This document shows positions 52,371 to 63,340 of a stretch of 64,000 nucleotides of DNA, one piece after another. The stretch is from Brumimicrobium mesophilum (lineage in GTDB: Bacteria > Bacteroidota > Bacteroidia > Flavobacteriales_D > Crocinitomicaceae): assembly GCF_003025005.1 (NCBI RefSeq), contig NZ_PVSS01000004.1:124001-188000 (forward strand), read 5' to 3'. Position 1 is the first letter of the stretch. Each line of letters starts with the position of its first letter. Made by a program: the position numbers and the translations under genes. The notes under the pieces were generated by a model. The model made no database searches. It was not told the DNA's origin and worked only from the letters and a program-made list of their open reading frames with translations.

Positions 52371-53726
52371 CTATTTCACATAAACCGTTTTCCTGTTCAC
52401 AAACTCCATCATTCCATCTTTCGATAATTCTCTTCCGTATCCTGAAAGTTTCGTTCCTCCAAAAGGTAAACGAGCATCAGATTTTACGAGTTCGTTGATG
52501 AAATATGCTCCATCGCTCACTGAATCTGCGTAACTTAATGCCAATTCAACGTTTTCTGTACAAACAGTTACGCCCAATCCATATTTTGAATTTTCAGAAA
52601 GTTCGAAGGCGTGTTCGATAGATTTTGCCTTGATCATTGCTGCTAATGGACCAAAACTTTCTTCATCGAAAGCAGCCATTCCCGGTTCAACATTTCCTAA
52701 AATTGTTGGTTCATGATAACAACCATCTTGTTTTCCTCCATGAATTAATTTCGCTCCTTTGTCAATGGAGTTTTGAACTTGTTTTTGTAATTCTTCTGCT
52801 AAATCAAGACGTGCTAATGGTCCAATCGTAGTATCATCCTTCATTGGATCACCAGACTTTAAAGTTTTTACTGCTTCTGTAAATTTCTCTACAAATTCAT
52901 CATAAACACCTTCAAGAATGATAAAACGCTTTGCTGCAATACAACTTTGACCACAGTTCATCATTCTTGCTGTTAAGGCAGTTTTAACTGTTTTGTCGAT
53001 ATCCGCATCTTCCCAAACAATAAAGGCGTTGCTTCCGCCAAGTTCTAATAAAGATTTTTTAATGTGTTTACCAGCAATAGCAGCAACCGAAGAACCAGCT
53101 CGTTCACTTCCTGTTAAGGTGATGGCTTTTATTCCGTCGTGAGAAACAATCTGCTCAGTTACGTCGTGGTGTATAATTAGATTTTGGAATACATTTTCAG
53201 GATAACCTGCTTTTGTGAAAAGTTCTTCAATCAATTTGGCACTTCCAAAAACATTGGAAGAATGTTTCAAGAATCCAACATTTCCAGCTGTTAGGGTAGG
53301 AGCCGCAAACCTCAATACTTGCCAAAAGGGAAAGTTCCATGGCATGACAGCTAAAACTCCACCGATTGGGTTGTGCGCAACAAAACTTTTTGAAGCATCC
53401 GTTTCAATCATTTCATTGGCCAAAAATGCTTCCGCATTATCAGCATAATAATCACAAACAGTTGCACATTTTTTCACTTCGCCTCTTGATTCTGAAATTG
53501 GTTTTCCCATTTCCAATGTGATCATTTTGGCATATTCCTCAACATTCTCAAGCAATAATTTTCCAACATTTCTTAATAATGAACAACGTTCTTTCAATGG
53601 AACTTTCTTCCAAGTTTCAAATGCTTTTTGACTATTGTCTAATTTTGCAGCCAATTCTTCTTTAGAAATTGACTGGTACACTGCTATTTCTTCCCCATTG
53701 TAAGGGTTGATTGTTTTAAATTCCAT
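52371..53726 (-). CDS. NAD(P)-dependent semialdehyde dehydrogenase (succinate-semialdehyde type)
   Basis: Aldehyde dehydrogenase of 451 residues with Asn131 in PWNFPFW, catalytic Glu228 in LELGGSNAF, catalytic Cys262 in NCGQSCIAAKR, and the end block LPFGGTKLSGYGRELSKDG. It matches the short succinate-semialdehyde dehydrogenases (YneI/Sad and related), which oxidise succinate semialdehyde from GABA, or glutarate semialdehyde from 5-aminovalerate. It is the last gene of the eight-gene operon, 23 nt after the C45 gene. The partner aminotransferase is the first gene. The substrate depends on which diamine feeds the pathway. Confidence 0.88.
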   Translation of the reverse strand: MEFKTINPYNGEEIAVYQSISKEELAAKLDNSQKAFETWKKVPLKERCSLLRNVGKLLLENVEEYAKMITLEMGKPISESRGEVKKCATVCDYYADNAEAFLANEMIETDASKSFVAHNPIGGVLAVMPWNFPFWQVLRFAAPTLTAGNVGFLKHSSNVFGSAKLIEELFTKAGYPENVFQNLIIHHDVTEQIVSHDGIKAITLTGSERAGSSVAAIAGKHIKKSLLELGGSNAFIVWEDADIDKTVKTALTARMMNCGQSCIAAKRFIILEGVYDEFVEKFTEAVKTLKSGDPMKDDTTIGPLARLDLAEELQKQVQNSIDKGAKLIHGGKQDGCYHEPTILGNVEPGMAAFDEESFGPLAAMIKAKSIEHAFELSENSKYGLGVTVCTENVELALSYADSVSDGAYFINELVKSDARLPFGGTKLSGYGRELSKDGMMEFVNRKTVYVK

Positions 53727-53749
53727 TTCTTATAATTTAATTTTTTGTT

Positions 53750-54934
53750 TTAAATAGGCTTATTCCAATAATCTGAAACTGCATTCCATGCAACTTCACC
53801 TTTAGGCATTAATTGACGCCTAAGTTCATTTTGTTTTTCCACTGAATCATCATTTGATATGCTTTTCACCAAAGAATCTACTAAGGCCTCTTGCCATGTA
53901 TGAGGGTTTTCTACTATTCCGTCTTGATCATAAGCCACAGGAATTGATTTAGCATTTAATTTTTCTTTGTAACGGATTGTAATTCTTCCATCCTTAAAAT
54001 TGTCAAAACTTCTTTCCATTACAGCATTGGGCCACATCAATTTCATTCTCAATTTTTCTGGTTGATAAACTGCAGTAAATAATGTTCCAAAACTTTTCTG
54101 GAATTTGGTATTGTATAATGGTGTGTGTAAAAAAGCCTTCGCCAATTGATCTGCGGAAATATCTTTAGATTCTAGATAATTGTTGAGAAATTTATAGCGT
54201 TTTACAGTTTGATTAAATTTAGCATTTTCAGGCCAATAAACCGCTCCTTGGTGGTTAGTAGAAAAAGCAGCTGGTGTTACTATAGTTTTTCGATTAGGAG
54301 CGAACATTATGGTTTTCGTTTCCCCAGTTTTATCAACCACAGTAACGTTATACGACATGTGGCAAGGAATATTCTTTAATTCTATCACAGCCTCTTTGGT
54401 ATTAGAACAAAATTCCAAGACATACCTTAAAATAAACGGAATTCCAAAACCAAAACCAATTTCATTTCGACCTCCGAATGTCAAGGAAACACAGAGACCA
54501 TCTTCATTCATTCCATCAATTAAACCAATCAAGCAATCAGAGGATCCAATCACTTTTTTTGAATTCCACTTACTTAATAATAAAGTTCCTTCGAGTAAAT
54601 CGGGATGATAATCATAATTTCTAACCAATTGAATTTCATCAGTTTGTATTACTGCTTGTGCACATCCTCCAAAATAAGCGGGTGGTTGAAAACCTGTAAA
54701 AAATCGAGCAAGATCCTCATCAGAGTTCGTTATTTTACACAAATGCTGATAAGAATCCCAAAATTTAGGCATAAATTCTTTAAGCGCCTTTTCACACTTT
54801 TTAAGATCAGGAACGGACTTCGAAGTATTTGATAAAAACCAAGATCTATAACCTTCCCAGTAAGTATCAAATAACTTTTTCCATTTTCGTCCAGCCTTAG
54901 TTGGTTCAGAAACAGCTTTAAATTGTAAATGCAT
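53750..54934 (-). CDS. C45-family Ntn hydrolase/acyltransferase, copy A
   Basis: Protein of 394 residues. A 90-residue N-terminal part is followed by Cys91 in FGG-CAQAV, the expected autocatalytic nucleophile, then LVRNYDY near residues 103-109, GSSDCLIGLIDGMNEDGLCV and STNHQGAVYWPEN. This is the pattern of the acyl-CoA:6-aminopenicillanate acyltransferase/C45 family, Ntn enzymes that cut or exchange amide bonds after self-cleavage before the Cys. No signal peptide, so cytoplasmic. Copy B lies 107 nt upstream. In this operon it may release an amine or amino acid from an amide made by the ATP-grasp ligase (inference). Confidence 0.85.
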   Translation of the reverse strand: MHLQFKAVSEPTKAGRKWKKLFDTYWEGYRSWFLSNTSKSVPDLKKCEKALKEFMPKFWDSYQHLCKITNSDEDLARFFTGFQPPAYFGGCAQAVIQTDEIQLVRNYDYHPDLLEGTLLLSKWNSKKVIGSSDCLIGLIDGMNEDGLCVSLTFGGRNEIGFGFGIPFILRYVLEFCSNTKEAVIELKNIPCHMSYNVTVVDKTGETKTIMFAPNRKTIVTPAAFSTNHQGAVYWPENAKFNQTVKRYKFLNNYLESKDISADQLAKAFLHTPLYNTKFQKSFGTLFTAVYQPEKLRMKLMWPNAVMERSFDNFKDGRITIRYKEKLNAKSIPVAYDQDGIVENPHTWQEALVDSLVKSISNDDSVEKQNELRRQLMPKGEVAWNAVSDYWNKPI

Positions 54935-62024: not shown

Positions 62025-62026
62025 AT

Positions 62027-63340
62027 TTACTTGCTTGTAGCTAATTTAATTTGGTTTTCAAAAATTGTTAATCCCTTATCCAATTGTTCTGGAGTGATTA
62101 CCAATGGTGATAATATACGAATAATATTTTTATGAGTTCCCGCTGTAATCATAATTAATCCTTTCTCAGCGCATCCTGCGACAATTTTTGAGCAAATTTC
62201 AGCATCTGGTTGTTTTGGATCATTGTTCTTAACAAACTCAATTCCAATCATTGCACCAACTCCTCTTACATCTCCAATTGACTCACATTCAGATTTTAAA
62301 GAATTTAACCTATCCATAATGGTTTTTCCAACAACCTTCGCTTTACCGTTTAGATCGATTTCCTTCATGTATTTAATTGTGGCTAACGAGGCAACACAAG
62401 AAATTGGACTTCCAATATAAGTTCCTCCAATTGAGCCACCTGCCGCAGCATCCATGATTTCTGCTTTTCCTAAAACTGCGGCTATGGGTAAACCTGAACC
62501 CATAGATTTTGCATAAGTACTGATGTCTGGAGTGATTCCATAATGTTGCCAACTCGCCCAATGACCTGTTCTGCAGAATCCACTTTGTACTTCATCCATG
62601 ATCAACATAATTCCATATTGGTCACAGAAATCACGCAATCCTTGGAGATATCTTTTGTTAATTGGATTAAATCCTCCTTCTCCTTGAATTGGCTCTAAAA
62701 TTACTGCAGCTATGCTTTTAGCATCTACTAAATTAAGAACGCTTTCATGTAATCGGTGTAATTCATCATCAATGAAAGCTTCTTCGTCTCTTTGTCCTTT
62801 ATATCGGTAAACGTTTGGAAAAGCAATACGGTAAACTTCTGGTGCGAAAGGACCACAATCCGGTTTATAGCTAATTTTACTCGTTAATGACATGGCCATC
62901 ATTGTACGGCCGTGATATGCTCCTGTGAAGCAAATAACCGCCTGACGTTTAGTTGCTTGTCTTGCAATTTTTATAGCGTTCTCAACTGCTTCAGCACCAG
63001 TGGTTACCAACATTGCTTTAGTATGTTCACCATGTGGTAGAATCTCAACCAATTCCTCACACAGCTCGATGTAAGGTTCATAGGTTACCACGTTGAAACT
63101 CGTATGTAAATATTTACCTGCTTGCTCTCTGATAGCCTCAACTACAGGTTCAGGACAATGTCCAGCGTTAACAACTCCAATTCCTCCAGCGAAATCGATT
63201 AGTTCATTCCCGTCGATATCAGTAATAATTGCACCTTTTGCATGTGCTACGGTTGCAGTGTTAAATACTCCAACTCCGTTCGCAACAATTTTCATTCTTC
63301 TTTCTAATAAAGCAAGAGAATTTACTTTTTCATTTCCCAT
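62027..63340 (-). CDS. gabT: 4-aminobutyrate aminotransferase (class III)
   Basis: The ATG at 63340 gives 437 residues; the longer frame from 63379 adds a non-protein-like 13. Class III aminotransferase with GAEAVENAIKIAR near 115-127, GAYHGRT near 140-146, EPIQGEGG near 216-223, Asp249 in MDEVQSGFCRTG and the PLP Lys278 in YAKSMGSGLP. It matches GABA transaminase (GabT), which moves the amino group of GABA (or 5-aminovalerate, as in DavT) to 2-oxoglutarate to give a semialdehyde. First gene of the eight-gene operon. The dehydrogenase that would take the product is the last gene. Confidence 0.93.
   Translation of the reverse strand: MGNEKVNSLALLERRMKIVANGVGVFNTATVAHAKGAIITDIDGNELIDFAGGIGVVNAGHCPEPVVEAIREQAGKYLHTSFNVVTYEPYIELCEELVEILPHGEHTKAMLVTTGAEAVENAIKIARQATKRQAVICFTGAYHGRTMMAMSLTSKISYKPDCGPFAPEVYRIAFPNVYRYKGQRDEEAFIDDELHRLHESVLNLVDAKSIAAVILEPIQGEGGFNPINKRYLQGLRDFCDQYGIMLIMDEVQSGFCRTGHWASWQHYGITPDISTYAKSMGSGLPIAAVLGKAEIMDAAAGGSIGGTYIGSPISCVASLATIKYMKEIDLNGKAKVVGKTIMDRLNSLKSECESIGDVRGVGAMIGIEFVKNNDPKQPDAEICSKIVAGCAEKGLIMITAGTHKNIIRILSPLVITPEQLDKGLTIFENQIKLATSK

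What the first reader, a model, noticed from the sequence alone, without database searches (positions are those of the whole stretch)
52371..63340. Eight-gene operon pairing a diamine-forming decarboxylase with an ATP-grasp ligase, two C45 amidases and GABA-type catabolic enzymes
Seen directly: eight minus-strand genes with gaps of 2, 24, 3, 31, 22, 107 and 23 nt, in order gabT-like, nitrilase amidase, VOC, Orn/Lys/Arg decarboxylase, ATP-grasp, C45, C45, semialdehyde dehydrogenase. Family knowledge: the decarboxylase makes a diamine; ATP-grasp enzymes of this sort form amide bonds; C45 Ntn enzymes break or exchange them; nitrilases free omega-amino acids from amides; GabT/dehydrogenase turn GABA or 5-aminovalerate into succinate or glutarate. 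Inference: a route in which the diamine is conjugated, oxidised and released. This is the logic of the gamma-glutamyl-putrescine (PuuA/PuuD) route and resembles DavA-DavT-DavD, but the ligase and hydrolase families differ and no amine oxidase is present. I know of no described pathway with this set.
Basis: partly seen in the sequence, partly recalled or inferred. Interest (0 to 1): 0.8.

Follow-up and report, generated by a model that had tools for sequence, protein, structure and literature searches.

The report
Conserved decarboxylase, ATP-grasp and GABA operon
Eight neighbouring genes in a marine bacterium form a real and widely conserved operon that most likely makes the small amino acid GABA, links it to something else and later burns it; it offers clues to the job of a decarboxylase family whose activity is still unknown.

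Summary
In detail: eight minus-strand genes with exactly the stated gaps. The operon is real: in 80 relatives the decarboxylase (OKR) lies beside the ATP-grasp gene in 74 of 75 with enough flank, and 60 of 61 scorable loci keep the gene order. Versions occur on Alpha- and Betaproteobacterial plasmids. OKR is of the Rv2531c type, whose activity is unknown. The diamine reading is possible but weakly supported. Neighbours point rather to glutamate and GABA: a sister OKR clade sits beside Asp-Ala antiporters; a Glu shared by aligned Lys and Arg decarboxylases is Asn, and two Arg are present; clusters without OKR carry an arginine-to-GABA gene set; the host's two Pyridoxal_deC proteins did not match glutamate decarboxylase. 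Best model: OKR makes GABA, the ATP-grasp enzyme joins it in an amide, C45 and the nitrilase release it, GABT and ALDH burn it to succinate. No substrate is shown here, and an arginine/ornithine route remains open.

The parts
62027..63340 (-). GABT: class-III aminotransferase, GABA-transaminase type
   Evidence: PF00202 406 bits; best NCBIfam models are GABA transaminases but below cut-off (TIGR00700 481 vs 506.65); ORF opens at 63379 with TTG
61083..62024 (-). NIT: nitrilase-superfamily amidase
   Evidence: PF00795 96 bits; no NCBIfam equivalog reached (best TIGR03381 77 vs 410)
60657..61058 (-). VOC: glyoxalase-fold protein, role unknown
   Evidence: PF00903 24 vs cut-off 20.6; in 50 of 59 relatives with enough flank
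57915..60653 (-). OKR: long Orn/Lys/Arg-superfamily PLP decarboxylase of the Rv2531c type
   Evidence: PF01276 256 bits; PDB 9n0n 805 bits over residues 13-897; STHK motif with PLP-lysine position K563 and R313, N723, R727
56258..57883 (-). ATPG: biotin-carboxylase-like ATP-grasp enzyme, PRK06524
   Evidence: NF005096 811>684; AlphaFold model with biotin carboxylase and PurK as best folds
55042..56235 (-). C45a: autoproteolytic acyltransferase/hydrolase
   Evidence: NF040521 154>85; Cys91 invariant in 36 of 36; isopenicillin N acyltransferase fold
53750..54934 (-). C45b: tandem copy of C45a (64% identical)
   Evidence: NF040521 166>85; a second co-directional copy seen only here and in Brumimicrobium glaciale L046 among the window, six genomes and 80 loci
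52371..53726 (-). ALDH: aldehyde dehydrogenase, SSADH-like
   Evidence: PF00171 444 bits; best NCBIfam PRK09406 513 vs 730
52203..52236 (-). terminator-like hairpin after the operon
   Evidence: consensus match only

Best explanation
A glutamate/GABA operon with an amide-conjugation step. (1) OKR decarboxylates L-glutamate, or a close glutamate derivative, to GABA (inferred). (2) The ATP-grasp enzyme spends ATP to join GABA by an amide bond to an unknown partner (bond type inferred from the superfamily). (3) C45 and/or the nitrilase cleave the amide and give GABA back (inferred from family chemistry). (4) GABT moves the amino group to 2-oxoglutarate, and ALDH oxidises the succinic semialdehyde to succinate (best-supported step, by family assignment). 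VOC has no assigned role. OKR plus ATPG (with VOC) look like the making half, since four loci with full flanks keep only these; NIT, C45, GABT and ALDH look like the using half. Shown here: genes, families, conserved order and recurrent partners. Not shown: any substrate or product.
For: Conserved block: OKR 74 of 75, NIT 51 of 59, GABT 51 of 59, C45 47 of 63, ALDH 45 of 63 with enough flank. GABA end: seven further Bacteroidota GABTs scanned score best on GABA-transaminase models, just below TIGR00700 (481-501 vs 506.65), and the Roseobacter one passes (543); the replaced ALDH of L092 passes SSADH TIGR01780 (724>646; 1 of 4 replaced ALDHs scanned). Glutamate side: the sister OKR clade (100/100) lies beside aspT in all 4 loci fetched, and 5 of 5 AspT proteins scanned pass TIGR03802; R313 and N723 are in 30 of 30 aligned OKRs and R727 in 28, N standing where aligned Lys/Arg decarboxylases have Glu; Glu/Leu/Phe/Val dehydrogenase genes lie near OKR in 4 of 6 rhizobial loci; a glutamate-synthase-domain gene is in the Roseobacter cluster. 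GABA as shared substrate: Shinella-type clusters keep ATPG, C45 and NIT but have an arginine-to-GABA set (AruI 737>500, SpeB, ALDH) instead of OKR and GABT. Host: no classical glutamate decarboxylase among its two PF00282 proteins; the operon GABT is the only GABA-type one among four class-III places.
Against: No substrate was tested. OKR homology is to Arg/Lys/Orn decarboxylases. The rhizobial dehydrogenases are below every glutamate dehydrogenase cut-off (435-480 vs 750). AspT-linked OKRs are only 41-44% identical to the window's and one locus also has aspD, which may own the antiporter. Rv2531c lacks R727. Symporters beside C45 in L083 and L136 could carry Glu/Asp or C4-dicarboxylates (both below cut-off). 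Arginine genes recur near ATPG, which also fits Arg/Orn. A ligase and hydrolases in one operon could be futile without regulation. C45 is absent from 16 of 63 and ALDH from 18 of 63 flanked loci. The other six operon genomes also have PF00282 proteins, which I did not classify.
Confidence: 0.4

Rival explanations
1. Puu-like diamine route: OKR makes putrescine, cadaverine or agmatine; ATPG conjugates it; GABT transaminates the free end and ALDH oxidises it, so no amine oxidase is needed; C45 or NIT releases GABA or 5-aminovalerate, which GABT and ALDH finish.
For: OKR superfamily; all Puu steps can be mapped if GABT serves as diamine transaminase; PuuR-like regulator beside the Roseobacter cluster (136 vs 211 bits); arginase and ornithine cyclodeaminase genes some kb from an OKR in L133.
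Against: Far below Lys/Arg/Orn decarboxylase cut-offs; Asn for the shared Glu; AspT neighbours; Shinella-type clusters keep ATPG and C45 without OKR and GABT; the host has SpeB, RocD and an arginase-like protein elsewhere.
Confidence: 0.27
2. Glutamate-amide order: ATPG first joins glutamate to an amine (gamma-glutamyl amide), OKR decarboxylates that amide to a GABA amide, and NIT or C45 releases GABA. It resembles the glutamyl-carrier logic of butirosin side-chain synthesis (recalled).
For: Asn at the VEKTG Glu position could hold a carboxamide (inference); OKR and ATPG are nearly inseparable (74 of 75) and four lake loci keep little else.
Against: ATPG and C45 occur without OKR in Shinella-type and C. 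necator clusters; it spends ATP for a net GABA shunt.
Confidence: 0.15
3. Arginine route: OKR plus GABT turn arginine into 4-guanidinobutyraldehyde and ALDH makes 4-guanidinobutyrate, equivalent to D-amino acid dehydrogenase plus AruI in Shinella; ATPG, C45 and NIT then process 4-guanidinobutyrate.
For: Chemical symmetry of the two gene sets; NIT relative near AruI in Ensifer L164; AST genes about 11 kb from the C. necator cluster.
Against: No ureohydrolase in the Bacteroidota block; GABT and ALDH assignments favour GABA and succinic semialdehyde.
Confidence: 0.12
4. Neighbours without a common pathway.
For: Parts of the block are missing in some relatives.
Against: Order kept in 60 of 61 relatives and the core shared with Alpha- and Betaproteobacteria.
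Confidence: 0.03

Closest known systems
GABA shunt (GadB, GabT, GabD; recalled)
   Same: GABA transaminase and semialdehyde dehydrogenase side by side; a decarboxylase in the operon.
   Different: The decarboxylase is of the OKR fold group, not Pyridoxal_deC; an ATP-grasp enzyme, C45 and a nitrilase are added.
Puu gamma-glutamylputrescine pathway of E. coli (recalled)
   Same: ATP-dependent conjugation, aldehyde dehydrogenase, amide release and GABA transaminase logic.
   Different: No glutamine-synthetase-type ligase, FAD amine oxidase or C26 hydrolase among the eight genes.
DavB-DavA-DavT-DavD lysine route (recalled)
   Same: Nitrilase amidase, transaminase and semialdehyde dehydrogenase.
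   Different: No lysine monooxygenase; ATP-grasp and C45 added.
Rv2531c (PDB 9n0n, 9n0o, 9n0p)
   Same: Full-length homologue of OKR, 805 bits; 43% identical over 892 columns.
   Different: Ile instead of R727; activity unknown.
Isopenicillin N acyltransferase (2x1c) and carcinine hydrolase-type C45 enzymes
   Same: Fold and invariant Cys91; a distant S. meliloti relative is annotated carcinine hydrolase/isopenicillin-N N-acyltransferase family.
   Different: About 13-15% identity to the solved acyltransferase; substrate unknown.
Biotin carboxylase and PurK (ATP-grasp)
   Same: Best fold matches of ATPG.
   Different: 12-15% identity; no biotin carrier domain found by Pfam; accC 26.6 vs 626.5 bits.

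Membership tests
OKR decarboxylase superfamily | OKR_DC_1 domain with the PLP-lysine motif STHK | tested here: met
   PF01276 256 bits, cut-off 27; STHK conserved
Lysine, arginine or ornithine decarboxylase (NCBIfam models) | score above the curated cut-off of any such model | tested here: not met
   best 199.6 vs 968 (LdcC), 166.2 vs 1167 (Arg), 161.4 vs 794 (Orn)
Lysine, arginine or ornithine decarboxylase (activity) | activity on the basic amino acid | not testable with these tools
   needs assay
Rv2531c-type decarboxylase | full-length similarity to Rv2531c, about 900 aa | tested here: met
   805 bits, residues 13-897
PRK06524 ATP-grasp family (NF005096) | score above curated cut-off | tested here: met
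   811.4 vs 684; the family is named biotin carboxylase, a function not tested
Biotin carboxylase | score above accC or related carboxylase cut-offs, with a biotin carrier | tested here: not met
   accC 26.6 vs 626.5; no carrier domain by Pfam in the eight proteins
C45 family | NF040521 over cut-off and conserved nucleophile Cys | tested here: met
   154 and 166 vs 85; Cys91 in 36 of 36
GABA transaminase | TIGR00700 over cut-off | tested here: inconclusive
   481 vs 506.65 in the window; seven other Bacteroidota proteins 481-501, Roseobacter 543 passes
Succinate-semialdehyde dehydrogenase | a curated SSADH model over cut-off | tested here: inconclusive
   window PRK09406 513 vs 730, TIGR01780 337 vs 646; replaced ALDH of L092 passes TIGR01780, those of L088, L103 and L118 do not
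Puu pathway | PuuA-type ligase, PuuB-type oxidase and PuuD-type hydrolase in the cluster | tested here: not met
   none of these Pfam families among the eight proteins; elsewhere in the genome not tested
Dav lysine pathway | DavB monooxygenase | tested here: not met
   not among the eight proteins; elsewhere in the genome not tested
Classical GABA shunt | Pyridoxal_deC glutamate decarboxylase | tested here: not met
   not in the operon; the host's two PF00282 proteins matched no glutamate decarboxylase model at E<=1e-40
N-carbamoylputrescine amidase (AguB) | TIGR03381 over cut-off | tested here: not met
   77 vs 410

The most novel reading that the evidence does not exclude
A previously undescribed, widely spread system that makes a GABA amide for storage or export: an OKR-fold glutamate decarboxylase paired with a dedicated GABA-joining ATP-grasp ligase, with C45 and a nitrilase reopening the store. 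It would give the Rv2531c decarboxylase family its first substrate class.
Probability: 0.25. Interest if true: 0.8.

Novelty: new variant of a known kind. Interest (0 to 1): 0.58.

Why it matters
A long PLP decarboxylase family that includes Rv2531c has solved structures but no known substrate (2026 review, passages read). This operon and its proteobacterial versions give the family recurrent partners (an ATP-grasp enzyme, C45, nitrilase, GABA transaminase, aldehyde dehydrogenase, and AspT in a sister clade), so the substrate question becomes testable with a few purified enzymes from harmless bacteria. It also marks a cassette of unknown product on rhizobial plasmids, in one fetched case next to nifHDKEN.

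Tried and rejected
Led nowhere: naming the ATP-grasp substrate from solved structures (sequence search reached only biotin-dependent carboxylases; the 50 fold matches shown are biotin carboxylases and PurK). C45 by sequence against the PDB gave nothing up to E=1, so I folded it. Papers: one search found none; one each, off the subject by title and abstract (listing only); one search listed 10 of 120 papers, none with Rv2531c; (9N0N) none. S. meliloti SMa0680/SMa0682 papers (listing 94; passages 97-99) could not be tied to these genes and are not used. That the VEKTG Glu binds substrate was not confirmed (none; speaks only of an acidic patch), so the motif argument stays an inference. The -33/-7-type promoter pattern (recalled for Bacteroidota) is not above chance in the window (10 found, 6.3 expected).

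Rejected: a true biotin carboxylase (no carrier domain by Pfam); polyamine biosynthesis (the agmatinase gene lies elsewhere, beside a gene I read by eye as SpeA); one shared importer in the proteobacterial clusters (binding proteins of the three lineages are only about 24-33% identical). The C. necator TPP enzyme that I first took for AruI is PRK08199 (850>539 bits; PRK07524 only 242 of 500).
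Full report
OBSERVATION. The eight minus-strand ORFs and their gaps (2, 24, 3, 31, 22, 107, 23 nt) are exactly as reported, and Pfam and NCBIfam confirm the families. The window is G000, contig C34. 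The nearest named relative among those fetched is Brumimicrobium glaciale (ATP-grasp 90% identical; L046). A terminator-like hairpin follows the last gene. No promoter signal above chance was found.

CONSERVATION. In a sample of 395 Bacteroidota genomes (host included) 7 pass the PRK06524 cut-off. All 7 have GABT, NIT, OKR, ATPG and ALDH together; 6 have C45 and 4 have VOC. Counted with enough flank: OKR 74 of 75, VOC 50 of 59, NIT 51 of 59, GABT 51 of 59, C45 47 of 63, ALDH 45 of 63; without the flank rule, of 80: OKR 77, VOC 56, NIT 56, GABT 54, C45 51, ALDH 55 on the same strand. The order is kept in 60 of 61 loci with at least four genes; the exception, L099, has an ALDH upstream. By record title the set includes Ignavibacteria, Calditrichaeota, Gemmatimonadaceae and Balneolaceae besides Bacteroidota. 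Of the 55 loci with ALDH, 39 have an orthologue (over 50% identity) and 16 a distant ALDH (25-32%); of 4 of these scanned, L092 passes SSADH TIGR01780 and three do not. Four loci with full flanks (L106, L115, L117, L121) keep only VOC, OKR and ATPG; whether the rest lies elsewhere in those genomes was not tested. An amino acid permease lies between OKR and ATPG in L093, L097 and L111 and after ALDH in L068 (one of the four scanned).

PROTEOBACTERIA. The plasmid collection holds the ATP-grasp gene in 32 records, 23 with at least 80% of the query; I fetched 13 (L126-L130, L134-L141). Roseobacter and Pseudorhodobacter: NIT-OKR-ATPG-C45; Roseobacter also has gabT, a glutamate-synthase-domain gene, a PuuR-like regulator below cut-off (136 vs 211) and a Dpp-type importer. 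Rhizobium and Sinorhizobium (6 loci): OKR-ATPG, with C45 in 5 (partial in L138; none seen in L127, where transposases follow); a Dpp-type importer in the same 5; L129 lies next to nifHDKEN. A Glu/Leu/Phe/Val dehydrogenase lies 1.3-5.2 kb from OKR in L127, L128, L137 and L139, all below glutamate dehydrogenase cut-offs, and was not seen in L129 or L138. Shinella and Roseateles XES5: no OKR or GABT annotated in the stretch; instead a permease, SpeB, AruI, ALDH, ATPG, C45, a D-amino acid dehydrogenase, a racemase-arginase fusion and RidA, with NIT and an Lrp-type regulator divergent. Sinorhizobium RAC02 is unannotated; NIT, a distant ALDH, ATPG and C45 were found in the same layout. XES5 also has an OKR elsewhere on the same plasmid, with arginase and ornithine cyclodeaminase genes 7-10 kb downstream. 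Cupriavidus: C. oxalaticus NIT-OKR-ATPG-C45 and then a dicarboxylate-type symporter; C. necator NIT-ATPG-C45 without OKR in the stretch, with Dpp-type genes upstream and an AstB gene (602>538) about 11 kb downstream. A symporter of the same family follows C45 in L083. Of 8 plasmid records with a NIT relative at E<=1e-40, 7 also hold ATPG in the same stretch; the eighth (Ensifer, L164) has it a few kb from AruI.

DECARBOXYLASE. OKR matches PDB 9n0n (Rv2531c) at 805 bits over its length; Arg and Lys decarboxylases follow at 212 bits or less. A 2026 review calls Rv2531c a putative amino acid decarboxylase and says that the cryo-EM study did not clarify its activity (PMC12910592, passages; the cryo-EM paper is not held). 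A deletion study found adi (Rv2531c) not crucial for growth on arginine (PMC4569260, passage). In 30 aligned family members (29 loci chosen from more than 90, plus Rv2531c) R313 and N723 are in all 30 and R727 in 28 (Pro once, Ile in Rv2531c); N723 stands where aligned Lys and Arg decarboxylases have the Glu of VEKTG. One paper reports an acidic patch lining the LdcI channel as the possible substrate site (PMC4832331, passages); that this Glu belongs to it is my assumption. In the tree of these 30, L131, L166, L167 and L168 form one clade (100/100); the deeper forks are weak and Rv2531c is a long branch. All four sit directly beside aspT; 5 of the 6 AspT proteins there were scanned and all 5 pass TIGR03802. 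Rhizobium T1473 also has aspD beside aspT and an HdeA/HdeB gene, which looks like an acid-resistance pair.

OTHER ENZYMES. ATPG models well outside residues 1-55 (mean pLDDT 80.7) and is nearest in fold to biotin carboxylase (E 1.3e-17, TM 0.54) and PurK. C45 (mean pLDDT 85.2) is nearest to isopenicillin N acyltransferase (E 1.9e-14, TM 0.61) with Cys91 invariant in 36 of 36. NIT passes no NCBIfam cut-off. The window GABT and seven further Bacteroidota GABTs lie just under the TIGR00700 cut-off; the Roseobacter one passes.

HOST GENOME. Ureohydrolases: 4 places: agmatinase (219>174), an arginase-like protein below cut-off (190 vs 228), one that matched no model at E<=1e-40, and one weak place not examined. 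Class-III transaminases: 4 places: RocD (673>378), an ArgD-like one below cut-off, the operon GABT, and one read by eye as HemL. PF00282: 2 places; neither matched a glutamate decarboxylase model at E<=1e-40. OKR_DC_1: only the operon copy. AAT/C45: only the operon pair.

INTERPRETATION. GABT and ALDH best fit GABA to succinate. The cluster types differ in how they would reach GABA: by one decarboxylation (OKR) or from arginine (D-amino acid dehydrogenase, AruI, ALDH, SpeB). Both keep ATPG, C45 and NIT, so GABA is the simplest shared substrate. With the AspT, glutamate-gene and motif evidence I take OKR to act on glutamate or a glutamate amide. A diamine route and an arginine/4-guanidinobutyrate route remain open, and no tool result shows a substrate.

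NOVELTY. I found no paper on this gene set in the held open-licence library. The enzymes are of known kinds and their combination appears undescribed, so I file it as a new variant of a known kind.

Noticed in passing
L131, L166, L167, L168: Rv2531c-type decarboxylases directly beside aspT antiporter genes in four Alphaproteobacterial genera, in L168 with aspD and an HdeA/HdeB gene: a possible acid-resistance pair.
   Followed up: partly
L106, L112, L115, L117, L120, L121, L125: A urea transporter fused to an M23 peptidase domain (L117 scanned; the others by clustering) lies divergent from VOC-OKR-ATPG in lake Bacteroidota.
   Followed up: no
L130 15785-17572: A 595-aa fusion of an ornithine-racemase-like domain and an arginase-family domain.
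   Followed up: no
window 57719-57883: The ATP-grasp protein begins with about 55 Lys/Ala/Pro/Thr-rich residues of low predicted order; such tails vary in length among flavobacterial orthologues and are short in L014-L016.
   Followed up: no
L128, L138, L139: A radical-SAM RiPP cluster (annotated Nif11-like leader in L128 and L138) lies near the OKR-ATPG genes on three Rhizobium leguminosarum plasmids.
   Followed up: no
L127 9141-11814 and L139 9087-11749: The decarboxylase gene appears split into two frames in these two rhizobial plasmids, as if decaying; left as found.
   Followed up: no
L009 12201-18466 (beyond the window's right end): By eye: a DGQHR-motif protein, a DNA methyltransferase-like protein, an ATPase and an HNH-like protein in a row, possibly a defence island.
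   Followed up: no
L127 4503-5780: A second ATP-grasp gene with an L-amino acid ligase C-terminal domain (LAL_C2) lies upstream of the rhizobial OKR.
   Followed up: no
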